64,000 nt of DNA from a virus (IMGVR_UViG_3300018080_000152:21914-85913), one strand, 5' to 3'; numbered from the stretch's first letter, positions 44,367 to 62,667 are shown. Numbers and translations: made by a program. Notes: generated by a model not told the origin, from the letters alone.

Positions 44367-45035
44367 TTAAGTAAGTGCATCCACAAGTTCCGTTATCTGG
44401 ATAGGATGCGGCTGCGTTGAATATCCAAACACGTTAAAATCCTGTTGGTACGTAGATACTACAGCGTCCACAATCTCTTGCTTATTGTAGTATGTGCGCC
44501 AATCCTTACGACCTACTGTTTTATTGACCCATTCTAGGTCTACGCTTAGGCCAGTTTGTCGCTTGACTTCTTCCCACGACTCTTTCATTTGTTCATATCG
44601 ACCAACATAGTTGACAATAACTGTCTGTTGGTCTTCCGAGCAAACGAACTGAACCTGCGGTCTAAAATGTAGTCCATTGCACGCCATCAGCGGCAGGCCG
44701 CGCAAACAAAAATCCTCAAAGCCGTTGAACTGCTGTAGAATTCTCTGGTCTGCCAAGTCAGTGTAGTATCCCAGACCACCACGAATAATGAATTCATATG
44801 CAGAAACCAGCCTGTCGAATGGATTTCTAACGAATGCAAACGTGAAACAGTCTATGAATGCATTTGGTCTCTTGTCACGATAATCCATCGCTGTGGCATG
44901 CATGCTGTTAATACCCAGGGCATCATCAATACTACAACCAGCAACCTTCGGAACATGAACAAAGAGAATCTTGTTCTTCATGTCAAACAATGGTCTCTGC
45001 ATTCTATCTGGCGTGTGTCTGTATTCTTCCGTCAT
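44367..45035 (-). CDS. sulfotransferase
   Basis: This 222-residue protein has ILFVHVPKVAGCSID, the 5' phosphosulfate loop of PAPS-dependent sulfotransferases (variant of PKxGxT/S), and FAFVRNPFDRLVSAYEF, the 3' phosphate-binding motif. It fits the Sulfotransfer_2 group that sulfates carbohydrates. Its ATG touches the NAMPT stop. In this window it could decorate a glycan made by the glycosyltransferases; the acceptor is not known. Confidence 0.8.
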   Translation of the reverse strand: MTEEYRHTPDRMQRPLFDMKNKILFVHVPKVAGCSIDDALGINSMHATAMDYRDKRPNAFIDCFTFAFVRNPFDRLVSAYEFIIRGGLGYYTDLADQRILQQFNGFEDFCLRGLPLMACNGLHFRPQVQFVCSEDQQTVIVNYVGRYEQMKESWEEVKRQTGLSVDLEWVNKTVGRKDWRTYYNKQEIVDAVVSTYQQDFNVFGYSTQPHPIQITELVDALT

Positions 45036-46447
45036 TATATCTCCCAGTCATAAATCTTAGCTCGTTGACGAACACGCTCAAGAGTTGCGTTGTTGTAAAC
45101 TACTCCGTTTTCAAACACATCCCGCATTACGTCTTGTCTATCATCTGACGCAGACACAGTATTCAACCAACGACCGTGGCTCGACTCTTCCCATACAAGC
45201 TTTAGCCTACCAGCCTTAGATTTCTTACCAGCATCTGTGATGGGGTCTTTCTGCACAATGCGCGACTGTCCGCGAACTTCTACTTCGGAACACTTAAATG
45301 CAAAGCGCTGTGTGTCACGATTGAGTTTTTGTAGTAAACCGCCACCGGAACCCATAGCCAAGTTATCGGCAGAAATTCCGTCTTCCTTCAATGTTTCCAG
45401 AATTCTAGACACCATATCGAAATCGATACCGTCACCCTGAATAACACGCACTTGTGGAGGAAGCACATCGTAACCCTTGTCATTTGTGGTATACCCAAAT
45501 TCTTTCATGAGCAGTTGGATAACCTTCTTGACTGTTGATGGTGGGTCTCCACTATCAGGACGCACGACAAGCGTACCCTCCCTGTTCATAATATCTTCTT
45601 TGAGGGTTTTACCCCATTTGTTTGTGCAGGCATCCCAAATATCGTAGCTGTCGCTCACACATGCAACAAGAGGTACTTCTGGATATGCCAACAGCATATT
45701 CTTCATGGCGTAAATTTCATTCGCTCGACCCCAACTCGTAATGGTTGAGTGCTCACTTGCTGGAATGGAAAAACCAGCTATATTACAACCATAAATCTTA
45801 TCTGCAAGGACCAAAGCTGGAAGTGTATCTGTGCCCTGGAAGTTTACCAAGTGGGCTGCGCCACCCAAAGCTGCTTGTTCAGGACATGTCACACCACGAC
45901 AACCGAAGTCGTGCAACTTAAAGTCTACACCATTAGGGTCGCCAGTTTCTTTAAGGTATCTCAACCACACCTTCTTCATTTCTCGTGATTGCGTAGCCAC
46001 CGTACAGGGATACCACACATTGACCAGCAAAGTCTCTAGGTAATTTGTCAGCCAAAAGTGCTTCGGGTCAGTTGCTTCAACTGTCATCATAACATTGCTG
46101 ACCGGAACGGGCGTTCCTTCTGGCACGGCCTTAATGCGCACGGGCAATCTACCTTCATGCCGCGTGGCAATATCCATCCAACCATCATAGTTGAACAGCG
46201 TTGCTCCAAAGTGAAGCTTAGCATATCTAGCTGCTTCCTCAACCTTTTCTTCGGTTACCACATTACCGTGCAGGTACTTAGCAAGGAAGTATTGAAGGCC
46301 AAAAAATACAGTCTTGCGCCAACGTGCGCCATCCCTGCTCTCAAAGTAAGAATACACGTTGTTTGTCCCAGCCGGGTACTGCCTATAGTGACTCATTTTA
46401 TACGAGTCGGTCAACATCATAATGTTATCACAACAATCCAAGCTCAT
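45035..46447 (-). CDS. nadV: nicotinamide phosphoribosyltransferase
   Basis: This 470-residue protein begins LTDSYKMSHYRQYPAGTNNVYSYFESR, the NAMPT/NadV signature, and carries HDFGCRG, GTDTLPALVLADKIYG, PASEHSTITSWG and VRPDSGDP for PRPP and nicotinamide binding. It makes NMN from nicotinamide and PRPP. Together with the NMNAT domain encoded at 48758-49864 the phage can rebuild NAD+ from nicotinamide, a route established in phages as a counter to NAD+-depleting defences. Confidence 0.93.
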   Translation of the reverse strand: MSLDCCDNIMMLTDSYKMSHYRQYPAGTNNVYSYFESRDGARWRKTVFFGLQYFLAKYLHGNVVTEEKVEEAARYAKLHFGATLFNYDGWMDIATRHEGRLPVRIKAVPEGTPVPVSNVMMTVEATDPKHFWLTNYLETLLVNVWYPCTVATQSREMKKVWLRYLKETGDPNGVDFKLHDFGCRGVTCPEQAALGGAAHLVNFQGTDTLPALVLADKIYGCNIAGFSIPASEHSTITSWGRANEIYAMKNMLLAYPEVPLVACVSDSYDIWDACTNKWGKTLKEDIMNREGTLVVRPDSGDPPSTVKKVIQLLMKEFGYTTNDKGYDVLPPQVRVIQGDGIDFDMVSRILETLKEDGISADNLAMGSGGGLLQKLNRDTQRFAFKCSEVEVRGQSRIVQKDPITDAGKKSKAGRLKLVWEESSHGRWLNTVSASDDRQDVMRDVFENGVVYNNATLERVRQRAKIYDWEI

Positions 46448-46459
46448 TTTTTTCTCCTA

Positions 46460-47020
46460 CTATCCAATCTTAAATACCCAACTAGAATCCTGAAACAGTT
46501 TCGGCTTACCAAACTTTTGACTCAATTCATCAACCGCTTGTGTTACACCTGGATGACCATTGTTGTAGTCATGCCCAGACAAATAACCATCGGGCCTTAT
46601 CTTGCTAATCCAAGCATTGCTGTCTCTAATAACACCTTCATATGTGTGTTCTGCATCAATATAGACTATGTCGATACTACCGTCTTCAATACGACTTGTT
46701 GCCTCAACAGTATCCATTTTCATTTTTACAACATCATGTCCATCTGCACACCAGCGTGATAAACATTCGTCGAATACTGGCTCTGCATCATCTGGACGAA
46801 CACCTGGAAGTGGTGTTTTATATGTCATTGGTGCCCATATGTCAATAGCATAAAACTTCTGTATTTTACCACTACGTAAAAACACAGAAGCGCTTTCCCC
46901 AGCAAAACTCCCAAGTTCTGCCATGACAATATTTGACAGTCCGGTAAAGTCTATTAGGTCTAACAGGCCGTTGGTTTCGGCAGTAGTCATCCTCATTGGA
47001 TACAATGGCGCTTTTATCAT
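46460..47020 (-). CDS. class I SAM-dependent methyltransferase
   Basis: This 186-residue protein has MAELGSFAGESASVFL (motif I with the SAM-binding glycines), KFYAIDIW (motif II aspartate), IDIVYIDAEHTYEGV (motif IV) and GYLSGHDY, the layout of Methyltransf_24-type O-methyltransferases. ATG 47020 has GGAG upstream, 18 nt after the predicted start of the promoter at 47045-47072. It is likely to act on a sugar or small molecule. Confidence 0.75.
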   Translation of the reverse strand: MIKAPLYPMRMTTAETNGLLDLIDFTGLSNIVMAELGSFAGESASVFLRSGKIQKFYAIDIWAPMTYKTPLPGVRPDDAEPVFDECLSRWCADGHDVVKMKMDTVEATSRIEDGSIDIVYIDAEHTYEGVIRDSNAWISKIRPDGYLSGHDYNNGHPGVTQAVDELSQKFGKPKLFQDSSWVFKIG

Positions 47021-47044
47021 TCTTTTCTCCAGTCTTCTACCGAT

Positions 47045-47072
47045 ATTATACACCAGTTTTTCATCCTGTCAA
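47045..47072 (-). promoter_or_regulatory. sigma70-type promoter
   Basis: TTGACA, 16 bases ending GGTG, TATAAT; the minus-35 overlaps the end of the glycosyltransferase gene at 47069-48151. It drives the methyltransferase, NAMPT and sulfotransferase genes. Confidence 0.75.
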
Positions 47073-48151
47073 CCCCAAATCTCTGACGAACCCAAGATTG
47101 TTTGTGCTGCGAATTTCCACGTTAGTTTTTGCGCAGTTTTAATACCCGCGACATTCTCTTGTTTATTATCATGAACAGCTCTCATGTGTGAAACTAAACA
47201 ATCGACTTGTTCATTTCCTAAAGCCGCCCATCTACCACCTTCGTGTTGTCCTTTGAAGAACACTCCGTCATATGCTTCTTCCGTGTCAGTGATTGGTATG
47301 AGATAACAATTGTTTTCATTGCAGAATTCTGTATGGGCCGAGTAATCTGTAGCAATTACTTGCTTGCCCATCGACATCATTTCCAGTAGCTCTAGGTTCC
47401 AGCCTTCACCACGCGCCGGAAATACGCCACAGTCCGCTTCTGCCATAACCTTAGCAACCTCTTTGTGCGACTGAACACGAGGTAAGAAGTTGATGCGATG
47501 GCCCATCTCTGTATTTCGATACATGTTCTGCCACGCCTTGTCATCTTCCTCGCTAATAAATGGGTTGTGGTTCATCATCCACAGGCGCACACGGTCTTTG
47601 GGGTTAAACGCTTTCGAGAATGCCTCTGCAATAATGTCGTGCCCCTTACGATACTCCCACTTGCCCACGTTTAAGAATGTCGTCCACGACGGGTCTGGCT
47701 CTCCAACTTGTTCGTTAAAAATTTCCCTATCAACTCCCAGCGGCACCACCTCCACTTGCTTACCGCCAAGGGGACAATTATCCAAAACTACCGTCTTTGC
47801 CCATTGTGAGCAAACAAGCACAACATCCATTACACTAACTTCATTTTTTTCAGCCTGGGTGAACCTATCAAGTTCAAAAATTGGATAACCAACATGAACT
47901 CCCCGACCAACGTGTTGCGCAAGGTCATGTTGATGCCAGATTCTTAAAGACGGAGCCCGTGGATAGTAGTTGTGTTTCTCATTATACGCACGTTGCACAA
48001 GAGGCATGAGAGACGGGTGACAATCCACTTGACCAATAGGCCACAACTTTACATCGACGCTTGCTGCGCAAAACTCTTTGAACAAGTTTGTGCCTACACA
48101 ACCGTATCCCAGTGTGTTAATTGGGCATGTCAGATTAAGACTTTTGAGCAT
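47069..48151 (-). CDS. glycosyltransferase, GT4 type
   Basis: This 360-residue protein shows a GT-B fold: an N-terminal glycine-containing segment (NTLGYGCVGTNLFKEF), VVPLGVDREIF, FLNVGKWEYRKGHDIIAEAF and PARGEGWNLELLEMMSMGKQVIATDYSAHTEF with the E-x7-E donor-binding motif. It transfers sugar from a nucleotide donor to an unknown acceptor. It overlaps the Tat protein gene upstream by 17 bases. Confidence 0.85.
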   Translation of the reverse strand: MLKSLNLTCPINTLGYGCVGTNLFKEFCAASVDVKLWPIGQVDCHPSLMPLVQRAYNEKHNYYPRAPSLRIWHQHDLAQHVGRGVHVGYPIFELDRFTQAEKNEVSVMDVVLVCSQWAKTVVLDNCPLGGKQVEVVPLGVDREIFNEQVGEPDPSWTTFLNVGKWEYRKGHDIIAEAFSKAFNPKDRVRLWMMNHNPFISEEDDKAWQNMYRNTEMGHRINFLPRVQSHKEVAKVMAEADCGVFPARGEGWNLELLEMMSMGKQVIATDYSAHTEFCNENNCYLIPITDTEEAYDGVFFKGQHEGGRWAALGNEQVDCLVSHMRAVHDNKQENVAGIKTAQKLTWKFAAQTILGSSEIWG

Positions 48152-48758
48152 TCAAATGCCTTTCCATTGCTGCTTTGTTGACGAACAAATTCACTTCCAT
48201 GTTAACAAATCCATTTTGGTCCGAATTTGTACGTGCGACTCCAATTGCATGACCAATATGCTGTGTTGTAAGCTTACCATCATTGTTGTAATACAACATG
48301 TCACCAATTTGCACTTGTTCATCAAACTGTCCAATCAGCAGTTGCCCACCCTGAGCAATGCGAACCTTACCACCTACTTGAACTTCATTCTTGTGGAAGT
48401 CCAAGTGGCGTCTTCCTAAATCAGCGTTGACAACATTATCAAGTAGGATACCAAGTGGTTGTCCACCGTGTCTTCCTGGTCGCACAACAGCATATTGATT
48501 ACCAACCATGCTGGGTTCAAATTTTACAAGTTCTACGACCGAGCCTTGTTCTGCTACCACATCACAAAAACAACAGCTTAGGTCAAGTGGAACATCCTTC
48601 ATTTGAGGAACTTTAGCCCCACTCTGTAACGTTGCATGTTGTCGTATTAACTCTTGAGCAGGAGATGGTGTCTCTGCTTTTGAGTCATCAACCGTGCGTG
48701 TTAAAGCTGCCGCAGGTAATAGTGCGGCACAAGCCTTCAAAAAACCTCGTCGTTCCAT
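48135..48758 (-). CDS. exported protein with Tat signal
   Basis: This 207-residue protein begins MERRGFLKACAALLPAAALT, a twin-arginine leader, followed by ETPSPAQEL. The mature part is beta-rich (GGKVRIAQGGQLLIGQFDEQVQIGDMLYY, then AIGVARTNSDQNGFVNMEVNLFV), which reminds me of phage decoration or capsid-cement folds, a low-confidence impression. Export to the cell surface or periplasm is expected. The start overlaps the CinA-NMNAT stop by one base. Confidence 0.7.
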   Translation of the reverse strand: MERRGFLKACAALLPAAALTRTVDDSKAETPSPAQELIRQHATLQSGAKVPQMKDVPLDLSCCFCDVVAEQGSVVELVKFEPSMVGNQYAVVRPGRHGGQPLGILLDNVVNADLGRRHLDFHKNEVQVGGKVRIAQGGQLLIGQFDEQVQIGDMLYYNNDGKLTTQHIGHAIGVARTNSDQNGFVNMEVNLFVNKAAMERHLNAQKS

Positions 48759-49864
48759 TATGTATTACTCCTTATTTCTGTTGAATTTTCTCCAGCGTCT
48801 TCGTAGTCATCAATAACCTGAACCATTCTTTCCATACCAATGTGTTTGTATGGTTTTCTTAAAACGCCCTTGCGATTAAATGCTAAAAAGTTCACGCCTC
48901 TGTGTACCATTTCATTGATGGCATTTACATATTCATTGTTTGTATCGTAATACTTGTAGTCATCAATACGATTAAGCGTATCCATACCAACAATAAAGGT
49001 TGCGCCAGGAAATAGTCGTGACTTCTTAACGAACAGTGGCTCTTGAGTTAATACAATCCCACCCAAAGCTGGGTCGCTCTCATACTTACTAAAAGAATCT
49101 ATTCGATTTCTACAAGATATCCAATCTACAGATGGCTTGGAACAATTTCTTATTGAAATCTCAAACCACACTGGCTTACCCGCGAGTTCATAAGCCTTAC
49201 GTGCCACTTTAATGTGTCCATCGTGTGCTGGATTAAAAGACCCAGGAAAGATAAGTGCATTTTGACCAGGGTGACCGTATGGTTCCTTGCATAGAGGCAC
49301 ATAAAACTTACCCTGTTTATCCATATCCCATGTTGTAGGTGCTGTTTCAGAACCCCAAAATTCATCTGTATCTATAGATGGATTCAAACAACTAACATTC
49401 AGATATTCAGCATAAGCCTTTAGGATAGTTTGCGAGGCAACTCTTTCCTGCTCATGCCTATCTCCATATTTAAGCAATACAGTGTGTGATGTAGTTTGTT
49501 GTTTGCCATGTATAGACACATAGATTTTGTGTTCACGACCTATGCGTTCTATGCCGTTTTTGCGCAAGGAGGATGTGGCTCCAACACCAATTACATTGCT
49601 GTGTCCAGAAATCATCTGTGCTCGTTCATACGCACAAACTGCAAGCTGACGCGATGCTTCCGGGGAACAAAACTTGTTTGGTTTGTAGCCGTTGAGCAAT
49701 TGAGTAAAACACACATGTGAGTATGGAACTTGTGCGTCAAGAAAGAACGAAGATGCACCACCTCGATTCAATAGTGTTGAGATTACCTCAGAACCACCTC
49801 CCGTTATATAGAATACGGTCGGAGTTGCTGCCTCTTGGAGCTTTTCCAGGGTTTTTGTTAGCAT
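48758..49864 (-). CDS. CinA-like plus NMN adenylyltransferase fusion
   Basis: This 368-residue protein joins two domains. Residues 16-155 resemble CinA/PncC nicotinamide-nucleotide amidases (TGGGSEVISTLLNRGGASSFF, CSPEASRQLAVCAYERA, VIGVGATSSLRK). Residues 203-368 are a nucleotidyltransferase with FPGSFNPAHDGH (HxGH at 214-217) and a C-terminal STEIRS (ISSTxxR-like). The second domain would convert NMN plus ATP to NAD+, completing the pathway begun by NAMPT. Whether the CinA part still hydrolyses NMN is uncertain; that would compete with synthesis. Confidence 0.8.
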   Translation of the reverse strand: MLTKTLEKLQEAATPTVFYITGGGSEVISTLLNRGGASSFFLDAQVPYSHVCFTQLLNGYKPNKFCSPEASRQLAVCAYERAQMISGHSNVIGVGATSSLRKNGIERIGREHKIYVSIHGKQQTTSHTVLLKYGDRHEQERVASQTILKAYAEYLNVSCLNPSIDTDEFWGSETAPTTWDMDKQGKFYVPLCKEPYGHPGQNALIFPGSFNPAHDGHIKVARKAYELAGKPVWFEISIRNCSKPSVDWISCRNRIDSFSKYESDPALGGIVLTQEPLFVKKSRLFPGATFIVGMDTLNRIDDYKYYDTNNEYVNAINEMVHRGVNFLAFNRKGVLRKPYKHIGMERMVQVIDDYEDAGENSTEIRSNT

Positions 49865-49866
49865 CG

Positions 49867-50397
49867 TTAATTTCCTTCCTTGCTTCTCATTCGTTTATGT
49901 ACTTGTGCTAGAGAAATTGGTTTATAGTCGTGACAATCTACACCAACGTCGAAAGATTCCTTGTATTTTGACAACGTACCATGACTGTGTCCATACAAAT
50001 GCCAAGAGCCATGAAAAGAGGCGTTCCACACACGCATACTGTAGTGACACAATACAATCTTCTTTCTATTGGTGATATCTAGGTCATATATTTTGTGTAC
50101 ACCATGAAATAGCTTACGCAAATCTTGACTGTCTTCTATTCTACGGTCGTGGTTTCCAAGAATCAAAACCACTTTCTTACAGTTAATCATGTTGCGGAAA
50201 CCCTCTATCCACATAGCATTTCCCCAGGAGAAATCACCAAGGTGATACAATGTGCCGTTGGCAGGAACACAAGCATTGATATTATCTGCTATGGCGTGTG
50301 TCATATCATGAGCATTATCCCACGGCCTGTTGCAATACTTGATAATATTTGTATGCCACGCATGTGTATCTGACGTAAACCATATGTCCTTTTTCAT
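49867..50397 (-). CDS. metallophosphoesterase
   Basis: This 176-residue protein has the calcineurin-like signature in order: FTSDTHAWHTN (D-x-H), HLGDFSWGN (GD), LILGNHDRR (GNHD), CHYSM and YGHSHGT (GHxH). These ligands hold two metal ions for hydrolysis of phosphate esters. Phage enzymes of this type have been linked to cyclic nucleotide or DNA-end processing; the substrate here is unknown. Confidence 0.85.
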   Translation of the reverse strand: MKKDIWFTSDTHAWHTNIIKYCNRPWDNAHDMTHAIADNINACVPANGTLYHLGDFSWGNAMWIEGFRNMINCKKVVLILGNHDRRIEDSQDLRKLFHGVHKIYDLDITNRKKIVLCHYSMRVWNASFHGSWHLYGHSHGTLSKYKESFDVGVDCHDYKPISLAQVHKRMRSKEGN

Positions 50398-51413
50398 TGG
50401 TCCTCTCTTCTGTTTACGAAGAATGCCTTAATCGCAGGCAACAACCTTTTTCCTTCGTCGCTAACGCGCCACAGCCCATTTTCTTGCTTAACCAAATCTC
50501 TACGTGGGTCATAATCCAGTTCATTCATAATATCTAGGCGTTGTGACGATGCTCTGTTGTGTACACTACCATGCCACAAATGATACACGAAGCTTGGAAT
50601 ACATGCTATGCTAAAATCAACCTCATCACAGAAACGTTGTGACCATTCAAAGTAGTTGCGAAGTTGAAAGCGACTATGTTTTGCGCACAAATCCCCAGCA
50701 TACTGTGAATATGTAGCAGCGCGAGCCATTAGGATATCAGCACCCCCAATGATAGATTCGTCGTAGAATTTAACCTTGTCTATAATTTCTCGTCTAATAC
50801 CCCACGACATACCACATAGACCATCTGGTTTCTGGATACTCTGATGCACCATACCACATATGTAACCATACATGCTAGCGCAATCATCATAACGAGTTGG
50901 AAAACTGTTTATATCAAGTTCATCAACAAACTCCAGTCCCTTTGGAAGATTAGCTGCGAAAGAAAATCCCTGCACCAAGTTGTAGATTTCCAAAGCATCG
51001 CTCATTTTCTGATGCCAGTCATCAGCTTGATACAATATGTCTTGGTCTATCCAACAAACTTTGTCACAGTCGTCTGGCAAGTGTTCTAGTGCTAGATTTA
51101 ACAATGCTTCTTTTTGCCACAGAATATCATTAGATACCACCTGTACAGCTATCTTTTCCTCTGGAACAATATTCTTTAATTGAAAAGCGCGGTCGTGTAA
51201 TGCAGCTTCCGCAAACAGAATATTGACACCTTGTCTATTCATACGTTCGTAGAATATAGCCACGTTTTCATCACGGCTAGTAAGCCCCAATGAATTAAAA
51301 TACGGACATATACACCACAATGAACCCGGTAGAGATTTCGGCCTTTTATTAGGCGTTGTCATCCGGCGTGGTTGTTGAGTCTGATTCTGGTTCTGTATTG
51401 GCTGTTGTGTCAT
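50394..51413 (-). CDS. glycosyltransferase, GT-A-like
   Basis: This 339-residue protein has KVCWIDQDILYQ with a D-x-D metal motif, CGMSWGIRREIIDKVKFYDESIIGGAD, and YHLWHGS, the pattern of the galactosyltransferase C-terminal type (a WHG or similar end motif). It is therefore likely a GT-A sugar transferase. It has a proline/glutamine-rich N-terminal tail and overlaps the next gene upstream by 65 bases. Confidence 0.65.
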   Translation of the reverse strand: MTQQPIQNQNQTQQPRRMTTPNKRPKSLPGSLWCICPYFNSLGLTSRDENVAIFYERMNRQGVNILFAEAALHDRAFQLKNIVPEEKIAVQVVSNDILWQKEALLNLALEHLPDDCDKVCWIDQDILYQADDWHQKMSDALEIYNLVQGFSFAANLPKGLEFVDELDINSFPTRYDDCASMYGYICGMVHQSIQKPDGLCGMSWGIRREIIDKVKFYDESIIGGADILMARAATYSQYAGDLCAKHSRFQLRNYFEWSQRFCDEVDFSIACIPSFVYHLWHGSVHNRASSQRLDIMNELDYDPRRDLVKQENGLWRVSDEGKRLLPAIKAFFVNRREDQ

Positions 51414-52179
51414 TTCCTATTATCCTTCCTTTGGCTTCAATCCAAAGTTCATTAAAATATTCATCGTACTGTTCGTATAACCATGCAAATTGTGGCGACC
51501 TAACATCACCAGGAACAGACGCAAAACTACGTAGCGTTGGCCCCTTGGTTGTATTGATAAGGTCTATACGCATATATGGTTCTGCAATTGCAGCGGAGAT
51601 TCTTTCAGCAGTATCGCATAGTTGTTGAATAACAGTAGCGTCTGGAATTAAATGAGTCAAATCGTTCTTTGAAGTTGAGCCCAACTGTGTTTTAGATACG
51701 TCAAACCACAATGTATCATTTGGTGTTATAGCTTGAATACACGCTACTCCTACTTCTCCACCAAATGTATGCATACAATAAGCTATAGGAATGCCCAGTT
51801 CATTACCACATAAGGGAAATTCCTCAAACAGAATATCAGCGCCAAGCTTCTGAGCCGCATCTATTTGAGCTTGTATTACATCGCCTGGAAACTCATGCTT
51901 ATTACTGTTAAACGAAAACAACCCATTATCGCCATCGTCTCTAACATGCATATATGTGTTTGTGTTGACATATATTGTTGGTCTAACAACAAACAAGTTG
52001 GGCAGCCTTCCGCTTAGTTCATCCCATGGCGGTACTTCATCTGGTGCGAAAAGCCCGTACACTTTTGGGCGAATGACGTTGGCCTCCATTGCCGTTCCAT
52101 ATACTTGAGTCATGTCTTTGTATTTAGCATAATCTTCTAAGTGGTTAACACGCTCCTTAACCCTATTTATGAATCCCAT
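51349..52179 (-). CDS. TupA-like ATP-grasp protein (tentative)
   Basis: This 276-residue protein has YMRIDLINTTKGPTLRSFAS followed by VPGDVR, resembling the C-terminal R-(V/I)-D-(L/F)-Y...G-x-x-x-F-(G/A)-E segment of TupA-like ATP-grasp enzymes used in cell-surface polymer synthesis. The upstream part (HEFPGDVIQAQIDAAQKLGADILFEEF) is not diagnostic. The acidic, threonine-rich tail overlaps the downstream gene. The family call is tentative. Confidence 0.45.
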   Translation of the reverse strand: MGFINRVKERVNHLEDYAKYKDMTQVYGTAMEANVIRPKVYGLFAPDEVPPWDELSGRLPNLFVVRPTIYVNTNTYMHVRDDGDNGLFSFNSNKHEFPGDVIQAQIDAAQKLGADILFEEFPLCGNELGIPIAYCMHTFGGEVGVACIQAITPNDTLWFDVSKTQLGSTSKNDLTHLIPDATVIQQLCDTAERISAAIAEPYMRIDLINTTKGPTLRSFASVPGDVRSPQFAWLYEQYDEYFNELWIEAKGRIIGNDTTANTEPESDSTTTPDDNA

Positions 52180-52931
52180 TTATGGTTCTCCTGTGTAATA
52201 TAGTCCCAATAATGAATGATGTTGCTGCTAGATGCAAATTTACGCGCAAAAAATGCAGTAGAATTTTTGAAACGTTCTACATCTATTGGATTAAGCTCAC
52301 CAACATATTCTTTTGGTGTTGATTGTACTTCTGATATCCTACCCCAATTTACATCAGACTGGTCTGTGTGAATAACGTTATGCAGTTCGCCAAGATGACA
52401 CATGACTGTACTAACATAGTGTTCGTCTGGCACTACGCATCGCGCAAAGTCTCCTGTAAAATTATACCGTATGAGAAGCTCTGCGTGGTCTCTTGTTAGA
52501 AACACCCATTGAGAATTTTTTCTGAAATGCTTCTTTGGAATCGTGGTGGTCTTAGACATGCGGTTTGTCCACTGTGTGGTGTGACAAAACCTAGATTTGT
52601 TTTCACTAAATGCTATGTCATAAATTTTGTGCCATGGTTTAATTGGTACGCACGAACCAGAGCAAAACGCAACACGTTGCACATCTGGGTCTCTTAAAGC
52701 ATATCGTATAAGCTCCAATTGTGCTATTACAAGACCAAGTTTACCCCACATTGTAGATACCCAACAGGGAATAAGATTGTCTTTTAGCCATGGTGTGTGT
52801 GTTTCATCTTGGTTTGCGGCATGACAACAAATAGTCATTGTGTCTTCATGGCCTTTGAAGTATTCTTCCCACAGACGTGGTTGGCTCATGTCACCATATA
52901 CTAAAAATGTATAAGCAATCTTTGGTTTCAT
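52167..52931 (-). CDS. GT14/core-2-branching-like glycosyltransferase
   Basis: This 254-residue protein starts KIAYTFLVYGDMSQPRLWEEYF, has VIAQLELIRYALRDPDVQRVAFCSGSCVPIKPW, and NSQWVFLTRDHAELL, the sequence order of core-2/I-branching N-acetylglucosaminyltransferases and their bacterial relatives. ATG 52931 has GAGGAC upstream. It is the first gene after the terminator that follows ssb. Confidence 0.7.
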   Translation of the reverse strand: MKPKIAYTFLVYGDMSQPRLWEEYFKGHEDTMTICCHAANQDETHTPWLKDNLIPCWVSTMWGKLGLVIAQLELIRYALRDPDVQRVAFCSGSCVPIKPWHKIYDIAFSENKSRFCHTTQWTNRMSKTTTIPKKHFRKNSQWVFLTRDHAELLIRYNFTGDFARCVVPDEHYVSTVMCHLGELHNVIHTDQSDVNWGRISEVQSTPKEYVGELNPIDVERFKNSTAFFARKFASSSNIIHYWDYITQENHKWDS

Positions 52932-52950
52932 ATTAGTCCTCAACATAAGC

Positions 52951-52988
52951 AAAACACCCACCAACCCTAATTAGAGATTGATGGGTGT
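52951..52988 (-). terminator. intrinsic terminator after ssb
   Basis: On the minus strand ACACCCA-T-CAA pairs with TTG-G-TGGGTGT across a 13-base loop and is followed by TTTT. It lies 25 bases after the ssb stop and separates ssb from the glycosyltransferase genes. Confidence 0.7.
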
Positions 52989-53013
52989 CTGTTGTTCGTC
53001 TTGAAGCCTATAC

Positions 53014-53442
53014 TTAGAACGGGATATCTTCATCACCACCGGCCTCATTGTTGTTTGCTGGCGCAGAGGTTTGCGCAGAAGTAGGAGCAGAACCACCGTT
53101 ACTACCACCCTTCGTACCAATCATCTGCATGCGGTCACCAACAACCTTGAGTTTTTGTCGCCTCTCGCCGTCATCTGTCTCCCACTGGTCCAACTTGAGA
53201 CGACCCTCGATAAGGACAGGTGCTCCCTTGCTCAAATATTCACCAGCAACTTCGGCGTTGCGACCCCACAGTGTGATGTCAACAAACGTGGTTTCCTCAA
53301 CCATGTTGCCGCCCTTGTCTTTGCGCTTTTCATTAACTGCCAAACCCATGTCAGTTACAGCGGCTCCACTTGGCGTGTATCTTAGCTCTACGTCTCGGGT
53401 AAGATTACCCATGAGAATAACTTTGTTAAAACTTCCAGCCAT
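53014..53442 (-). CDS. ssb: single-stranded DNA-binding protein
   Basis: This 142-residue protein begins [20 protein letters not shown] and has [21 protein letters not shown], a glycine/serine-rich linker and the acidic tip DEDIPF. That is the complete bacterial SSB layout: OB-fold, flexible linker and partner-binding tip. ATG 53442 has AAGGAG upstream. It coats single-stranded DNA and recruits replication and repair proteins. The OB-fold protein at 740-1123 is a second, tip-less SSB. Confidence 0.9.
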
Positions 53443-53476
53443 GTCTTGAATCTCCTTGTTGAGTAAAAGAAAAATA

Positions 53477-53689
53477 TTACTTGTCGTCGAACTCACCAAG
53501 CAAACCGCAAGATGGACATTCTGGAACCCAACGGTCGTTATATGACCATGTCATATTGTGTGTTGTTTCGCTATCAACAGTGAAGGCATCACCGCACTGT
53601 TCGCACTCAAGTTCACCAACGATGTAGCTACCGTGATGGTAGACTTCTAGGACTGTAAATCCTATCCACGATGTAGTCTCAAGTTCCAT
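53477..53689 (-). CDS. small zinc-ribbon protein
   Basis: A 70-residue protein with CEQCGDAF near residue 29 and CPSCGLLGE near residue 58, four cysteines of a zinc ribbon. It is the first gene after the consensus promoter at 53735-53762 and is followed by ssb. Function unknown. Confidence 0.6.
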
Positions 53690-53734
53690 GTTATGTACCC
53701 TTGTGTTCAGAGTGAGTTTCGTTTTGTCTACTGT

Positions 53735-53762
53735 ATTATACCACGGATGTGCGCTATGTCAA
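53735..53762 (-). promoter_or_regulatory. promoter of the ssb operon
   Basis: TTGACA, 16 bases and TATAAT, perfect. It drives the zinc-ribbon gene and ssb. Confidence 0.75.
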
Positions 53763-53772
53763 CCCCTATTCA

Positions 53773-53809
53773 CAAAAAAAGTGTCGGCGGCGGGAGTCGA
53801 ACCCGCCAG
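53773..53809 (-). terminator. orphan tRNA T-arm followed by a T-tract
   Basis: A perfect T-arm hairpin (GGCGGG/CCCGCC around TTCGACT) with part of a 3' acceptor strand, but no tRNA body, follows tRNA-Leu(TAA). It ends in ACTTTTTTT, so it has the form of an intrinsic terminator, probably left over from a tRNA. Confidence 0.6.
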
Positions 53810-53891
53810 TGACCAAGGTGGGAATCGAACCCACACGCCCGAAGGCACGGCATTTTAAGTGCCGCATGTCTACCAATTCCATCACTTGGCC
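53810..53891 (-). tRNA. tRNA-Leu(TAA)
   Basis: Acceptor GGCCAAG/CTTGGTC, anticodon stem CGGCA/TGCCG with loop CTTAAAA (anticodon TAA), a long variable arm, T-loop TTCGATT. CT follows discriminator A. Confidence 0.9.
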
Positions 53892-53894
53892 AAA

Positions 53895-53908
53895 TTTTGG
53901 TGTATAAT
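53895..53908 (+). promoter_or_regulatory. TTTGGTGTATAAT element of the plus-strand HNH gene
   Basis: TATAAT at 53903-53908 preceded by TTTTGGTG, 44 bases before ATG 53952, with no TTGACA. It is the same element as before the minus-strand HNH genes, here in the opposite orientation with its gene. Confidence 0.45.
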
Positions 53909-53951
53909 TAAGTGTGCGCCCTTATGTGTCTACCAATTATGAGAGGATGCT

Positions 53952-54413
53952 ATGAGACAATATCGTAAATACACAGAAGCACAGTTTATCGAAGCTGTGC
54001 GAACATCCACTTCCAAACGGCAAGTGTTGATAAAGCTGGGGCTAGCCCCACAAGGTGGCAACTACGCCACTGTCACTCGACTTATTCAACAACTTAGTTT
54101 GGATACATCACATTTTTTAGGTCAAGGACACGCCAAAGGCAAAAGGTTTGATTGTAGAGTCAAGCCAATTGAAGATTACTTGTCTGGCAAGCGAGACATT
54201 AAAAGCTATAAGCTCAAAAAAAGACTACTAGACGACGGCTTGTTCCAACATCGCTGTTGTCGTTGTAGACGCACTACCTGGATGAAACAACCAATCCCAC
54301 TAGAGCTTCATCACATTGATGGTAATTCTAGCAACAATCAACTTCACAACTTGGAACTATTGTGTCCTAACTGTCACGCACAAACGCCCAATTATCGTGG
54401 TCGAGGTATTTAG
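53952..54413 (+). CDS. HNH endonuclease, only plus-strand gene
   Basis: This 153-residue protein has an N-terminal helix-turn-helix region (YTEAQFIEAVRTSTSKRQVLIKLG), typical of small phage HNH proteins, and an HNH core: CCRCRRTTWMKQPIPLELHHIDGNSSNNQLHNLELLCPNCHAQT. GAGAGGATGCT precedes the ATG. It is the only gene opposed to the general direction, sits beside tRNA-Leu and is flanked by tRNA fragments, which fits recent insertion of a mobile element. It converges with the Tat-leader gene at 54422-54814. Confidence 0.85.
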   Translation: MRQYRKYTEAQFIEAVRTSTSKRQVLIKLGLAPQGGNYATVTRLIQQLSLDTSHFLGQGHAKGKRFDCRVKPIEDYLSGKRDIKSYKLKKRLLDDGLFQHRCCRCRRTTWMKQPIPLELHHIDGNSSNNQLHNLELLCPNCHAQTPNYRGRGI

Positions 54414-54421
54414 ACACAGAC

Positions 54422-54814
54422 CTACACTGACGCTAGAAGCATTTTCCACGCTTCTTCTTCTCGTTTTCTAGCAAACTCCTGTTCCATCACGTCCATAGCC
54501 CTGGCGACAATATCCCACCGGGCATCACTGGCGTGTTCCAACATGAAGTCTACGGCCCCGCCCACGTCGGGCAGCTTTGGAGTTTTGACCTCTTCTTTAG
54601 CGGGAACCTTCTTGTGCGGAATCGTGTAGGCAACATAGTTGTCGCCCTTCACTACCACTGGTTTGTCGGGAACCGGCCCCATCTCAATGGACTTGTCAGC
54701 ACGAAAGATACGCTGCTCTTTTTCAGCAGGAGAGGCTGCCTTCCCTGCTAACCCCCCACACGTAGCCAGCGCTATTGCACCCAGCGCATTTTTCAGGAAG
54801 TCTCGTCGTTTCAT
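54422..54814 (-). CDS. exported protein with Tat signal
   Basis: This 130-residue protein starts MKRRDFLKNALGAIALATCG, a twin-arginine leader with a cysteine after the hydrophobic part, then GKAASPAEKEQ. The mature part is charged, with a helical C-terminus (DVMEQEFARKREEEAWKMLL). ATG 54814 overlaps the upstream stop as ATGA. Function unknown; it is one of four Tat-leader proteins in the window. Confidence 0.7.
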   Translation of the reverse strand: MKRRDFLKNALGAIALATCGGLAGKAASPAEKEQRIFRADKSIEMGPVPDKPVVVKGDNYVAYTIPHKKVPAKEEVKTPKLPDVGGAVDFMLEHASDARWDIVARAMDVMEQEFARKREEEAWKMLLASV

Positions 54815-55233
54815 GTTCCCATAATCTCCGTGGCCTTGGCTATTGGACCATCCATAGGAATGTCTGGCCCCCAAATGAGGTCGCCTAGAGACACTTTGTG
54901 ACGTGGGTTGTCTTCATCCTTGGCGGGCATTGGCACGTAGGGGTCGCAAATGTATAGCGAAATGTCGCGTGGAGACACGCCATGTTGTTCCGCTATTGCA
55001 CAAGCCTTCTTGTTGAGTTCTTCTAGTGATGTGACCGACTCAGTGAAGTCGTAGTCGGGACCAGTAGCAAGAACCTCACCCATGTACACGTCGCCGTCAT
55101 CTACGATAACACCGCTCACACCCCACAGGTCTTCGTACTCTTCTTCGGTAAACTCCTTGGCGTTTTTCTTGATACCCAAGAGAACGAAAGAAGAAGTGCT
55201 GCTGTTGCTCACAAATCCAAGTCTACGTTTCAT
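54811..55233 (-). CDS. GFVSNSSTSSF-leader family protein, copy 3
   Basis: This 140-residue protein starts MKRRLGFVSNSSTSSFVLLG at ATG 55233, with AAGGAAC upstream. The body matches the protein at 4142-4516 throughout (MGEVLATG, AIAEQHGVSPRDI) and adds a C-terminal extension. The conserved leader (K-x-R-x-GFVSNSST-S/T-SF) with a variable body suggests a processing or targeting tag; I know of no proven function. Confidence 0.7.
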   Translation of the reverse strand: MKRRLGFVSNSSTSSFVLLGIKKNAKEFTEEEYEDLWGVSGVIVDDGDVYMGEVLATGPDYDFTESVTSLEELNKKACAIAEQHGVSPRDISLYICDPYVPMPAKDEDNPRHKVSLGDLIWGPDIPMDGPIAKATEIMGT

Positions 55234-55261
55234 GTCATGTTCCTTATACAAGTCCTGTTAG

Positions 55262-55345
55262 TACCGGGAGGGGGAGTCGAACCCCCACGGCCTTGCGGCC
55301 ACCAGATTCTAAGTCTGGCGCGTCTACCAGTTCCGCCACCCCGGC
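55262..55345 (-). tRNA. tRNA-Leu(TAG)
   Basis: Acceptor GCCGGGG/TCCCGGT, anticodon stem CCAGA/TCTGG with loop CTTAGAA (anticodon TAG), long variable arm, T-loop TTCGACT. CT follows discriminator A. Confidence 0.9.
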
Positions 55346-55348
55346 ATA

Positions 55349-55615
55349 TCACTTTTTCAACCTGATGATAGGCTTGAAGCCTACGACTTCGTACTTCTTA
55401 TTGAAGGCGTCACGACGCCGACAGTATTCCACCCATATTGCATTGTCAATATCTCGTGCGCCATTAACACCACTATAGACAACGTGATGAACAATACTGT
55501 TCCAGCATGAGTCGCAAATATCTGGCAGAAATCTTCCTTGGTGTGTGCTGAGGTCTCTCTGCTCAGCAGAACAACCACAACAACCACATGTTAGCCAGTT
55601 TATCATCGACGCCAT
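55349..55615 (-). CDS. cysteine-rich small protein
   Basis: An 88-residue protein with CGCCGCSAEQRDLS near residue 10 and CDSCWNSI near residue 34, probably a zinc-binding module similar to small phage HNH-like or recombination endonuclease VII-like fingers, but without a catalytic core. It lies between tRNA-Leu and tRNA-Thr. Confidence 0.5.
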   Translation of the reverse strand: MASMINWLTCGCCGCSAEQRDLSTHQGRFLPDICDSCWNSIVHHVVYSGVNGARDIDNAIWVEYCRRRDAFNKKYEVVGFKPIIRLKK

Positions 55616-55631
55616 GCTTCAATCCTCCAAG

Positions 55632-55704
55632 AGCCCCAGGTGGGAATCGAACCCAATCTTCATCCTTACCAAGGATGTGTGCTAACCTTTATCACTTCTG
55701 GGGC
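55632..55704 (-). tRNA. tRNA-Thr(GGT)
   Basis: Acceptor GCCCCAG/CTGGGGC, anticodon stem CATCC/GGATG with loop TTGGTAA (anticodon GGT), T-loop TTCGATT. Discriminator T followed by CTT. Confidence 0.87.
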
Positions 55705-55709
55705 TTACA

Positions 55710-56024
55710 CTATCCAGTTTTTACTAGCAATAGCCCTATAATTGTCATGGCCACTCCGCTCCATTGCCACAAACCAAAGCTTTCTGTTTTACCATATGCG
55801 GCAAGCACAGCTACGCAGGTAACCATCAATATGCCATCAAACAACAGACCGTCGAATAACAGGCTTTTTGAATACCGAGCCACCACTGGCCATAAACCAA
55901 ACGCTTGTATCAACCACATATAGAACATTGGTGCAATAGCCCGTGTATCGTTTGCCCACACTGAACAGTAGTAGTAGAATACTGTAGTCAGTATTAACAC
56001 TGGAACCCACCAATATAATATCAT
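55710..56024 (-). CDS. membrane protein, four transmembrane helices
   Basis: This 104-residue protein starts at ATG 56024 with AAAGGAC upstream; longer frames run into the tRNA. Hydrophobic segments are at about 1-18, 32-48, 56-75 and 86-102. Size and topology resemble small multidrug-resistance-type transporters, but their conserved glutamate is not evident. It lies between tRNA-Ala and tRNA-Thr. Confidence 0.55.
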   Translation of the reverse strand: MILYWWVPVLILTTVFYYYCSVWANDTRAIAPMFYMWLIQAFGLWPVVARYSKSLLFDGLLFDGILMVTCVAVLAAYGKTESFGLWQWSGVAMTIIGLLLVKTG

Positions 56025-56038
56025 GTGCTGTCCTTTAG

Positions 56039-56111
56039 TGGAGCCGATGGGACTTGAACCCACAACCTCTTGTCTGCCAGACAAGCGCTCACCCAGTTGA
56101 GCTACGGCCCC
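56039..56111 (-). tRNA. tRNA-Ala(GGC)
   Basis: Acceptor GGGGCCG/CGGCTCC, anticodon stem CTTGT/ACAAG with loop CTGGCAG (anticodon GGC), T-loop TTCAAGT. CT follows discriminator A. Confidence 0.88.
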
Positions 56112-56112
56112 G

Positions 56113-56586
56113 TTACTTAAATGTGTCATCCAACAATAGGTCAAGAAATGTTTTGATTTCTTTATACACTCGACCTTGTGTCGTAAATCCCCACCGCTTT
56201 GTTGCCTTTTCCTTAACCCACTCTCGCAAATCAGTTCCAAATTCTGCGCTGCGAGCCTTCCAACCACAAACCATCTCAGCAACATACACACTAGGCATGT
56301 TCTCAATCCCCTCCCAATATTCTGGGTGGTGAGGATTAGTCCTCGTGTGTTGTTCTACGGCACACTGAAAACGTTCTAAGTTATTTTCCTTAGATGATTC
56401 GTCCAGGTATTCCCATTCTATGCCACGAAATTTGCTGTTGTCGTGCAACATGCTGTTAGCAAGGAGAGACCGTGCGAAGGTGTGCTTCCCTTGCTCAATA
56501 AGACGCTCAGCCAACAGCGCGCATTCGTCCTGCACGTTGTTAATATGGCGCACGAGCGCCCTGATAGGTTTTTCTTCGTCAGTCAT
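56113..56586 (-). CDS. DUF5662-like protein
   Basis: This 157-residue protein has HINNVQDECALLAERLIEQGKHTFARSLLANSMLHDNSKF and IEWEYLD, then HHPEYWEGIENMP, the pattern of the phage/bacterial DUF5662 family (HD-like helical protein with conserved HDNSK and HHPEYW). The family has histidine/aspartate pairs suggesting a metal-dependent hydrolase, but no activity known to me. It is co-transcribed with the 52-residue gene (TAATG overlap). Confidence 0.75.
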   Translation of the reverse strand: MTDEEKPIRALVRHINNVQDECALLAERLIEQGKHTFARSLLANSMLHDNSKFRGIEWEYLDESSKENNLERFQCAVEQHTRTNPHHPEYWEGIENMPSVYVAEMVCGWKARSAEFGTDLREWVKEKATKRWGFTTQGRVYKEIKTFLDLLLDDTFK

Positions 56587-56744
56587 TACCAGAATTTCCA
56601 GAATGGTTTGTCGTTAGCTTTGCGTTCAAGTAGCCGCTTAATACACATATCAATGTGCTCGTCAAGCTTTTTGTCGATAATGCCAGCCTTGAATTCTTTA
56701 AGCTCTGTAGCTAAACAAGCAATGTCTTTTTCTGTGAATTTCAT
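56586..56744 (-). CDS. small hypothetical protein
   Basis: ATG 56744 follows GGGAG and opens 52 codons ending DKPFWKFW. It is the first gene after the consensus promoter at 56767-56794, and its TAA overlaps the ATG of the DUF5662-like gene. Helical and charged; function unknown. Confidence 0.65.
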   Translation of the reverse strand: MKFTEKDIACLATELKEFKAGIIDKKLDEHIDMCIKRLLERKANDKPFWKFW

Positions 56745-56766
56745 AAATTTCTCCCTTCTGAATACT

Positions 56767-56794
56767 ATTATACACTAAATCTCGAAAATGTCAA
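56767..56794 (-). promoter_or_regulatory. sigma70-type promoter
   Basis: TTGACA, 16 bases, AGTG and TATAAT, directly after the glycosyltransferase gene. The leader is about 16 nt with a ribosome-binding site. Confidence 0.75.
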
Positions 56795-56796
56795 GC

Positions 56797-57528
56797 CTAA
56801 ATCCACCTTCTTTTTTTACAGCCGTTCTCGCCGGGGTGAAAAACCTTGACGTTCGTATCTACACAAATAAGCCCCTTGTGCTTACGAACACTAGAACACA
56901 ATTCCCTAAAGGCCCCTGTGCCAAATGAAATATTATTATTACATAGAAAGTTTGCATCCATAACTGCACAAGAACCAACAGATGACATTCTTACTATTCG
57001 CTGCTGAGGTATTAGGCTTGCGCTTGCCCATGGTTTATCTTCTGAGTCAACAAAGCCCCAAGTATCATAAAATCTCTCTGTGCTGTTCTTCTCTTGTAAA
57101 AAAACCAACGGCGCTACTATTGCCGCTTCTGTTTCCTTTAAGGTCGTCAGTAGGTCTTCAATAACGTTGGGCTCTATAATTAAGTCTGATTCTATCCAGG
57201 CTATATACTGACATCTATCCTTTAGTTCGTTCAACACTCTATTTGCTATTGTTGATAAGTATGATATTCTTTGTTGATTTGTGGTGGACTGCACAGTGGT
57301 ACTACATTGTTGCTCACAACTCAACAATAAAACATTGTTCATTCTATTGGCATAAGCTTGTAATACCATGCGTGTGTCGTCAACAGAATGGCCCTCTAGA
57401 ATACATATAAGCGGCTGTGAACATGTTTGCTGCTCTATCTGCTGAAAGTATCTATCTACTTGGTTGATGTGAATACCACACCATTGTTGACTGTCTCTGA
57501 AAAGAGACCCTATTCCAATTTCCCACAT
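56797..57528 (-). CDS. GT2/Anp1-like glycosyltransferase
   Basis: This 243-residue protein has YIAWIESDLIIEPNVIEDLL (an E-S-D in place of the usual D-x-D), AAIVAPLVFLQ and VRMSSVGSCAVMDANFL, the sequence order of Anp1/mannan-polymerase-like GT-A proteins. It is likely a sugar transferase in the glycan cluster. Its start overlaps the HAD gene by 19 bases. Confidence 0.65.
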   Translation of the reverse strand: MWEIGIGSLFRDSQQWCGIHINQVDRYFQQIEQQTCSQPLICILEGHSVDDTRMVLQAYANRMNNVLLLSCEQQCSTTVQSTTNQQRISYLSTIANRVLNELKDRCQYIAWIESDLIIEPNVIEDLLTTLKETEAAIVAPLVFLQEKNSTERFYDTWGFVDSEDKPWASASLIPQQRIVRMSSVGSCAVMDANFLCNNNISFGTGAFRELCSSVRKHKGLICVDTNVKVFHPGENGCKKRRWI

Positions 57529-57833
57529 TCTTTCGCCTCGGCTAATGACACATAGCTTCTATCATCAATTAGAACATCACATATTGGTTTGCCACATATC
57601 AAAACGTGGTATTTCACACCATGTCTTTTTAACCAGTCTTCCAACGTGAGTAGTTCTGCCCATCCACACGCCGTGTGTAATGTTACATGCCAACCAGAAT
57701 CATACACTGCGTTCAATATGTTGATTTCAGATTGGATTGCTGGAGCCAATGGTTTGTCAAACGTTGGACTTTCAACGCGGAGTACCCCATCTATGTCACA
57801 TACTAGACGCTTACGCTTGGAAGAAGTGGTCAC
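57510..57833 (-). CDS. HAD-like phosphatase
   Basis: This 107-residue protein has LVCDIDGVLRV (nucleophile aspartate, D-x-D), GWHVTLHTACG (threonine motif II) and VLIDDRSYVS (motif IV). That is a minimal HAD fold without a cap, as in small phage phosphatases and LicD-linked hydrolases. The substrate could be a sugar phosphate given its neighbours. Confidence 0.7.
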   Translation of the reverse strand: MTTSSKRKRLVCDIDGVLRVESPTFDKPLAPAIQSEINILNAVYDSGWHVTLHTACGWAELLTLEDWLKRHGVKYHVLICGKPICDVLIDDRSYVSLAEAKECGKLE

Positions 57834-58689
57834 GAAATGTTCTCCTCATATAAACTCCATATTGTGGTGCGTAATGTCCACGCAATGTTCTTATTGGAAG
57901 CCGACGACATATGTGGTCTGTAGCACATTCAATCATATTAAAACCAGCCGCATGAGACAGTGTATTGCCACCGCCAAAACGTGCGTTTACTTCAAAGCAA
58001 AAAATTGCGCCATCACCACGCACTCGAAACTGCGCACAACATGGTCCATCTATTTGCATTCGCTCACCAATAGCTTTGGTTATGCTATGCAGTTCTTTGT
58101 TATTTACCGTTACACTATCTACTACCTCGCCACCAGCCACACGAAGTCTCTGTCTGGGCAGCGTACCAATACAAACACCATGCCGAAAATAGGCATCTAC
58201 AGTAAACTCGTTTCCTGGTATTTCTTCTTGTACCACAATGTCATTTGAGTCATCAACACGATATGGTATAACCATTGGTGGAATGTGCCTAATTCCCGCA
58301 GAACCACATCCAAGCCGTGGCTTTATAATTAGAGGTTTATTTACTTGAGGTGACGGATATATGTCAGGAAAATGATTTTCCATCCAATCGGCAAACTTGT
58401 GTTTGTCTCCACATATATCTATTGCTTGCGGAGATGATACCAAGATGTTATCATGGTCCATTCCGAGATATGCAGCTTTTGGCAAAACACGCTCATGTAA
58501 TGGAATAACCAAGTCATAGTCGTCTACAATATCTGACAGTTGTGTTTCTTGTGTTAAAAACACATGGCTAACAACTTCTGAAATTGGTACGTGTCTATCT
58601 GTTTCATATGCATCTACTGCTGTTGCAGAATTGCGAACCAGCGATGCGAATGCTACACGACGACCGGCTCCTACTAATAGAATTTTCAT
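57811..58689 (-). CDS. ATP-grasp ligase, CarB/PylC-like
   Basis: This 292-residue protein opens with a Rossmann-like segment (KILLVGAGRRVAFASL), has PLIIKPRLGCGSAGI (the ATP-grasp glycine-rich loop), IVVQEEIPGNEFTVDAYF and FCFEVNARFGGGNTLS with the E-x-N metal ligands. It joins a carboxylate to an amine or other group using ATP; in this cluster modification of a sugar is plausible. It overlaps neighbours by 23 and 4 bases. Confidence 0.8.
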   Translation of the reverse strand: MKILLVGAGRRVAFASLVRNSATAVDAYETDRHVPISEVVSHVFLTQETQLSDIVDDYDLVIPLHERVLPKAAYLGMDHDNILVSSPQAIDICGDKHKFADWMENHFPDIYPSPQVNKPLIIKPRLGCGSAGIRHIPPMVIPYRVDDSNDIVVQEEIPGNEFTVDAYFRHGVCIGTLPRQRLRVAGGEVVDSVTVNNKELHSITKAIGERMQIDGPCCAQFRVRGDGAIFCFEVNARFGGGNTLSHAAGFNMIECATDHICRRLPIRTLRGHYAPQYGVYMRRTFRDHFFQA

Positions 58690-59930: not shown

Positions 59931-59932
59931 GT

Positions 59933-62102: not shown

Positions 62103-62103
62103 T

Positions 62104-62664: not shown

Positions 62665-62667
62665 AAG

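What the first reader, a model, noticed from the sequence alone, without database searches (positions are those of the whole stretch)
45035..49864. NAD+ rebuilding pathway: NAMPT plus a CinA-NMNAT fusion
NAMPT makes NMN from nicotinamide; the NMNAT domain makes NAD+. Phage pathways of this kind are known to counter defences that destroy NAD+ (Thoeris, DSR, SIR2-type). The added CinA-like domain is odd because active CinA would deamidate NMN, so it may regulate the route or work on damaged nucleotides.
Basis: partly seen in the sequence, partly recalled or inferred. Interest (0 to 1): 0.7.

Follow-up and report, generated by a model that had tools for sequence, protein, structure and literature searches.

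The report
Phage NAD-rebuilding gene pair, unusual enzyme
A bacterial virus carries two linked genes that together should turn nicotinamide back into the essential cofactor NAD+; the second enzyme belongs to an unrecognised family, also found in many bacteria, in which an NAD-making domain is fused to what looks like a disabled copy of an enzyme that would otherwise divert the intermediate.

Summary
The NAMPT gene (45035-46447, minus strand) keeps its active-site residues, is 50% identical to human NAMPT, and lacks the Namat (NARP1) signature. ORF 48758-49864 (minus strand) is a real two-domain protein: a PncC/CinA-like domain plus a NadD-like nucleotidyltransferase domain (AF2 pTM 0.90; Foldseek hits are CinA and NadD).

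The PncC catalytic lysine is absent in all 93 fusion sequences examined, while the phosphate-site residues are kept. So the domain probably holds NMN (or a similar nucleotide) without deamidating it.

The fusion is not phage-specific: it is common in bacterial chromosomes, with no NAMPT beside it in 79 of 80 loci. In divergent phages it sits near NAMPT, several times directly adjacent. In SAR86, 50 of 61 genomes have the fusion while none has NadC, NadD, NadE or NAMPT/PncB above cut-off. It is therefore the only visible candidate NMN adenylyltransferase there, and NMN deamidation would be a dead end.

Best reading: a NARP2-type NAMPT + NMNAT pathway using an undescribed NMNAT family. Counter-defence is plausible but untested. 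New variant of a known kind.

The parts
45035..46447 (-). NAMPT (nicotinamide phosphoribosyltransferase, NadV type), 470 aa; makes NMN from nicotinamide and PRPP
   Evidence: active-site residues incl. the phosphorylated His (human H247 = H233) kept; GSGGGLLQKLNRD instead of the Namat motif
48758..49864 (-). CinA/PncC-like domain fused to a NadD-like nucleotidyltransferase domain, 368 aa; proposed NMN adenylyltransferase
49385..49864 (-). PncC-like domain of the fusion, residues ~1-160; phosphate-site residues G36, S38, Y48, R136 kept, catalytic Lys position = F53
   Evidence: hhalign mapping; conservation; Foldseek
48761..49255 (-). NadD-like domain of the fusion, residues ~204-368; PGSFNPxHxGH and (S/N)STEIR motifs
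46460..47053 (-). Methyltransf_24 methyltransferase lying between the two genes (not part of the pathway as far as known)
   Evidence: a similar-sized gene also lies between the two in the relative L017
47069..48151 (-). family-4-type glycosyltransferase lying between the two genes
48135..48758 (-). 207-aa protein of unknown function with a twin-arginine-like N-terminus, between the two genes
   Evidence: counterpart in the same place in L017

Best explanation
The phage encodes a two-enzyme nicotinamide-to-NAD+ route. NAMPT joins nicotinamide to PRPP to give NMN. The NadD-like domain of the fusion then adenylylates NMN to NAD+. The fused PncC-like domain has lost the catalytic lysine of NMN deamidase but kept the pocket that holds the nucleotide phosphate; it most likely binds NMN (or a related mononucleotide) and acts as a substrate-holding or regulatory domain rather than as an amidase. 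The phage took this NMNAT from a widespread but unrecognised bacterial family, which appears to be the only NMN adenylyltransferase in the SAR86 clade. The benefit to the phage is restored or raised NAD+ during infection, possibly against NAD-depleting defences. Shown by computation: gene identities, intact motifs, absent lysine, conserved linkage to NAMPT, SAR86 gene distribution. Inferred: NMN as substrate, NMN binding by the PncC-like domain, direction of transfer, the counter-defence role.
For: NAMPT identity and intact active site. NMNAT domain: closest solved sequences and folds are NadD; HxGH and SxxxR motifs plus K243, K281, D295, R299, R331 invariant or nearly so in 93 sequences. Linkage: the fusion lies within about 50 bp of NAMPT in L005, L006, L010, L011 and L032, and within about 4 kb in the window, L016, L017 and L018. 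PRPP synthetase lies about 2 kb away in L006's phage. A Nudix gene lies near the fusion in L010, L012 and L016, and an NrtR-type NAD regulator lies beside an NMNAT-only relative in L015. PncC Lys63 equivalent never K in 93 sequences; Ser31 equivalent is T, A or S; G46, S48, Y58 and R145 equivalents near-invariant; K63A and S31A abolish activity in A. tumefaciens CinA (PMC5384747). SAR86: 0/61 NadD, 0/61 NadE, 0/61 NadC, 0/61 NAMPT/PncB above cut-off, against 50/61 with the fusion. A census of HxGH nucleotidyltransferases in 12 of these genomes leaves no other NMNAT candidate.
Against: No assay exists. In 17 of 20 fusion-bearing cellular genomes a normal NadD is present above cut-off, so outside SAR86 the fusion is not the housekeeping enzyme and could do something else. 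Cellular neighbours are not NAD genes. Eleven of 61 SAR86 genomes show no convincing fusion gene (some are surely incomplete), and the source of NMN in SAR86 was not established. Several phages carry the fusion or the NMNAT domain without a detectable NAMPT (LR745208, LR756511, L007 type, L013, L015), though many records may be fragments. The residue map rests on a profile alignment at about 17% identity, not on a superposed structure.
Confidence: 0.72

Rival explanations
1. Same enzymes, but the role is general metabolic support (auxiliary metabolic genes raising NAD(P)+ for nucleotide synthesis and burst size), not counter-defence. This differs from the best explanation only in the biological purpose.
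For: The record also carries ribonucleotide reductase, thymidylate synthase and many tRNAs, i.e. a generally self-sufficient phage. NAMPT occurs in 1,893 of 50,697 phage records of many hosts.
Against: Published NAD+ reconstitution pathways restore NAD+ against NADase defences (PMC12774641, PMC12043709, PMC11984713). The host and its defences are unknown here, so the two cannot be told apart.
Confidence: 0.5
2. The PncC-like domain is an active amidase or another catalytic enzyme (with a different nucleophile), for example converting NMN to NaMN or repairing damaged NMN, and works in sequence with a NaMN/NMN adenylyltransferase.
For: A threonine sits at the nucleophile position in 63 of 93 sequences, T97 (AtCinA T105) is mostly kept, and a family-specific G-x-x-H motif (G109, H112) is strongly conserved. 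The asparaginase-like alternative mechanism uses Thr and Lys (PMC4246079).
Against: The Lys required in both proposed mechanisms is absent in 93/93; the nucleophile position is Ala in 15 of 93. SAR86 has no NadE to use NaAD, so NaMN production would be a dead end there.
Confidence: 0.15
3. The adenylyltransferase domain acts on something other than NMN (NaMN, FMN or another phosphorylated cofactor precursor), and the closeness to NAMPT is incidental.
For: The family matches no NMNAT model above its curated cut-off. Cellular copies are not next to NAD genes and mostly coexist with NadD.
Against: Repeated direct adjacency to NAMPT in divergent phages, a nearby NrtR regulator, NadD as nearest fold, and the SAR86 gene pattern.
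Confidence: 0.13

Closest known systems
Phage NAD+ reconstitution pathway 2 (NARP2: Nampt + NMN adenylyltransferase)
   Same: A phage-borne NAMPT makes NMN and a second phage enzyme should adenylylate it to NAD+.
   Different: As recalled from the original NARP2 work (not held in the library), the adenylyltransferase there is of an established type; here it is a NadD-like domain fused to a PncC-like domain, and no anti-defence activity has been tested.
NARP1 (Adps + Namat)
   Same: Namat is a NAMPT homologue and the end product is NAD+.
   Different: The window NAMPT has the ordinary Nampt sequence GSGGGLLQKLNRD, not the shorter Namat consensus ending in TRD with aromatic residues (PMC12774641).
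NadD (nicotinate/nicotinamide mononucleotide adenylyltransferase, TIGR00482)
   Same: Fold, GxFxPxHxGH and SxxxIR motifs; nearest solved relatives.
   Different: Far below the family cut-off (18.8 against 112.45 bits); fused to a second domain; in SAR86 it occurs where NadD is absent.
PncC / CinA C-terminal domain (NMN deamidase, PF02464)
   Same: Fold (Foldseek TM normalised to target ~0.7) and phosphate-binding residues.
   Different: Catalytic Lys absent in all 93 fusions, catalytic Ser mostly replaced by Thr or Ala, and the ESCTGG block changed to xTGGG.
NadM-Nudix bifunctional NMNAT (Synechocystis slr0787; Vibrio phage KVP40 NatV)
   Same: Two-domain NMNAT; in KVP40 it works with a phage NAMPT (NadV) (KVP40 recalled from memory; NadM-Nudix described in PMC3680494).
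   Different: The partner domain is a Nudix ADP-ribose pyrophosphatase there, a PncC-like domain here.

Membership tests
NAMPT (NadV) | Full-length NAMPT_N + NAPRTase domains above Pfam cut-offs | tested here: met
   (132.4 and 185 bits against 25 and 20.8)
NAMPT (NadV) | Catalytic His and nicotinamide/PRPP-binding residues | tested here: met
   D16, Y18, F193, R196, D219, H247, D279, R311, D313, G353, D354, G384, R392 all kept
Namat (NARP1) | GS-x-x-x-x-x-x-TRD selectivity-clamp motif with aromatic residues | tested here: not met
   GSGGGLLQKLNRD
NMN adenylyltransferase (works like) | Nucleotidyltransferase signature H-x-G-H and S-x-x-x-R with Rossmann-type fold | tested here: met
NMN adenylyltransferase (works like) | NMN + ATP to NAD+ activity | not testable with these tools
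   indirect support only: NAMPT linkage and SAR86 distribution
NadD family TIGR00482 | Score above the curated cut-off | tested here: not met
   18.8 against 112.45 bits
PncC NMN deamidase | Ser/Lys catalytic dyad (AtCinA S31, K63) | tested here: not met
   K absent in 93/93; S only in 12/93
PncC NMN deamidase | Phosphate site G46, S48, Y58, R145 | tested here: met
   G36, S38, Y48, R136
NARP2 phage counter-defence | Phage-encoded NAMPT + NMNAT-type gene | tested here: met
   (gene content only)
NARP2 phage counter-defence | Restores NAD+ and phage growth against an NAD-depleting defence | not testable with these tools
   needs infection assays; host unknown

The most novel reading that the evidence does not exclude
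The fusion is a further bacterial NMN adenylyltransferase family (beside NadD, NadM and NadR), with a built-in PncC-derived NMN-binding pseudo-amidase domain that senses or feeds NMN. It is the sole last step to NAD+ in SAR86, a very common group of ocean bacteria, and has been taken up by phages to pair with NAMPT.
Probability: 0.5. Interest if true: 0.75.

Novelty: new variant of a known kind. Interest (0 to 1): 0.55.

Why it matters
If right, it assigns a function to a widespread two-domain protein that current family libraries do not call an NMNAT, explains how SAR86 could finish NAD+ synthesis without NadD and NadE, and shows a dead deamidase recycled as a nucleotide-binding partner of the enzyme it would otherwise compete with. 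It also extends phage NAD+ rebuilding to a new kind of second enzyme. The main points can be tested with one purified protein.

Tried and rejected
A single-sequence viral scan with the fusion found nothing; an alignment was needed. A paper on 'NMNAT-C' (PMC13036487) looked like the same protein but 'C' is not a CinA fusion: its tested HxGH histidines are residues 16 and 19. PnuC in 35/61 SAR86 genomes was first taken as proof of nicotinamide-riboside uptake; dropped, because the operon is TonB-type receptor - PnuC - choline-kinase/APH-like kinase, which could equally be a thiamine system. The ~258-aa weak NadD hits in SAR86 look by sequence like an RfaE-like nucleotidyltransferase followed by a cupin-like part, not an NMNAT. 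L032 is labelled an archaeal MAG but groups with a phage fusion and has NAMPT next door, so it is probably a mis-binned phage contig (not proven, and long branches are involved). Monophyly of the phage fusions was neither shown nor rejected (p-AU 0.32, quick tree). No paper on this fusion was found in the open library.

Full report
What is there. The window is part of an 85.9-kb virus record with phage DNA polymerase, primase, DnaB helicase, ribonucleotide reductase, thymidylate synthase and RNA ligase genes and 19 tRNA genes. On the minus strand, 45035-46447 encodes a 470-aa NAMPT and 48758-49864 a 368-aa two-domain protein. Three other genes lie between them: a methyltransferase, a glycosyltransferase and a protein with a twin-arginine-like N-terminus. 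The closest relative (L017, NAMPT 77% identical, fusion ~46-47%) keeps a similar order with one further gene inserted.

NAMPT. It scores far above Pfam and NCBIfam cut-offs and matches a PHROG family at 1.8e-162. It is 50% identical to human NAMPT (227 of 456 aligned positions) and keeps the catalytic His and the nicotinamide/PRPP site. The published signature separating Namat (NARP1) from Nampt is absent (PMC12774641), so the product should be NMN, which needs an adenylyltransferase. NAMPT as such is common in phages: 1,893 of 50,697 annotated phage records.

The fusion. The C-terminal half is a NadD-like nucleotidyltransferase. The N-terminal half is related to PncC/CinA: weakly by Pfam in 7 of 12 viral members, clearly by profile-profile alignment (97% probability, 1.4e-10 in global mode; 96%, 2.1e-9 in local mode), and by structure. 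The AF2 model has pLDDT 89.7 and pTM 0.90, and Foldseek ranks CinA/PncC structures first, then NadD. In annotated phages the fusion is rare: one record with both domains (LR745208) and one with the NMNAT domain alone (LR756511); alignment-based scanning of IMG/VR found twelve loci.

Is the CinA-like domain an active deamidase? In A. tumefaciens CinA, Ser31 and Lys63 form the catalytic dyad, and S31A and K63A are inactive; G46, S48 and Y58 hold the nucleotide phosphate, and Arg145 corresponds to the phosphate-binding Arg377 of the T. thermophilus enzyme (PMC5384747; PMC4246079). Mapping by hhalign and counting over 93 fusion proteins: the Lys position is never Lys (F in the window); the Ser position is Thr in 63, Ala in 15, Ser in 12; the phosphate-site residues are invariant or nearly so. 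The simplest reading is a domain that still binds a nucleotide monophosphate such as NMN but does not deamidate it by the known route. A family-specific, strongly conserved G109/H112 leaves room for another chemistry. The NMNAT domain also occurs without it (L003, L015), so the PncC-like part is probably accessory.

Not a phage invention. The genome scan found relatives at 213 of 243 pattern matches; the 80 kept are mostly Gammaproteobacteria, Planctomycetota, Rokubacteria and Chloroflexota, 27-36% identical. Their neighbours are not NAD genes; the commonest is an alpha/beta hydrolase (judged from sequence) just upstream in about 20 of 80 loci. Only L032, probably a mis-binned phage contig, has NAMPT beside it. 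In a quick tree the phage fusions cluster, though a single clade is neither shown nor rejected.

Linkage to NAD metabolism in phages. The fusion lies within about 50 bp of an NAMPT gene in L005, L006, L010, L011 and L032, and within about 4 kb in the window, L016, L017 and L018. In L006's phage a PRPP synthetase gene follows about 2 kb on, giving a possible PRPP-NMN-NAD+ line. Nudix genes lie near it in L010, L012 and L016, and an NrtR-type regulator (NrtR is a known regulator of NAD genes) lies beside the NMNAT-only gene in L015. Some phage records show no NAMPT, but many may be fragments.

SAR86 as a natural test. Of 20 cellular genomes with the fusion, 17 also have NadD above cut-off; the three exceptions are SAR86 (two are so titled, the third falls in the same group). 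In 61 genomes of that family, NadD, NadE, NadC and NAMPT/PncB are above cut-off in none (control genomes positive in each search), while the fusion is strongly matched in 50 (one copy is interrupted by stops, one is cut by a contig end). A census of HxGH nucleotidyltransferases in twelve of them gives, judged by size and partly by sequence, PPAT-like (~164 aa), RfaE-like and RibF-like (~317 aa) proteins and the fusion. So the fusion is the only visible candidate for the last step of NAD+ synthesis; without NadE the substrate should be NMN, and NMN deamidation would be a dead end. How SAR86 gets NMN is open: PnuC is present in 35 of 61, but its operon could serve thiamine. Absence of genes is judged on many incomplete genomes, though one (G036) has a single 1.23-Mb contig.

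Verdict. It is a NARP2-type phage NAD+ route with an undescribed kind of NMNAT. The counter-defence role is borrowed from published NARP systems (PMC12774641, PMC12043709, PMC11984713) and not tested here; general metabolic support is an equally open alternative. Steps shown are sequence, structure prediction and gene distribution; activity, ligand and role are inferred.

Noticed in passing
window 48135-48758, 21418-22026, 54422-54874 (minus strand); L017 ~512-1149 and 6774-7379: Three proteins of this phage and three of its relative L017 begin with twin-arginine (Tat-like) signal sequences (e.g. MKRRDFLK, MERRGFLK). Tat signals on several phage proteins are odd and unexplained; the same scan found none in five other loci.
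   Followed up: partly
window 1730-8286 (minus strand): The DNA polymerase gene is split: ORF 6331-8286 covers profile positions 42-615 and ORF 1730-3616 covers 683-1078 of phrog_405, with several ORFs between, including an HNH endonuclease (5617-6264) and an exonuclease-subunit-like gene (4933-5604).
   Followed up: partly
window 44367-62694: A long same-strand block with sulfotransferase, methyltransferase, glycosyltransferase and ATP-grasp genes surrounds the NAD genes, suggesting phage-encoded glycan or surface modification.
   Followed up: no
L015:6784-8483: An NrtR-type Nudix/winged-helix regulator gene sits directly before a stand-alone NMNAT-domain gene in another phage, i.e. possible phage-borne control of NAD genes.
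   Followed up: no
SAR86 family genomes (G035 and 60 relatives): NadC, NadD, NadE and NAMPT/PncB are all absent above cut-off, implying dependence on an external NMN- or nicotinamide-riboside-like precursor.
   Followed up: partly
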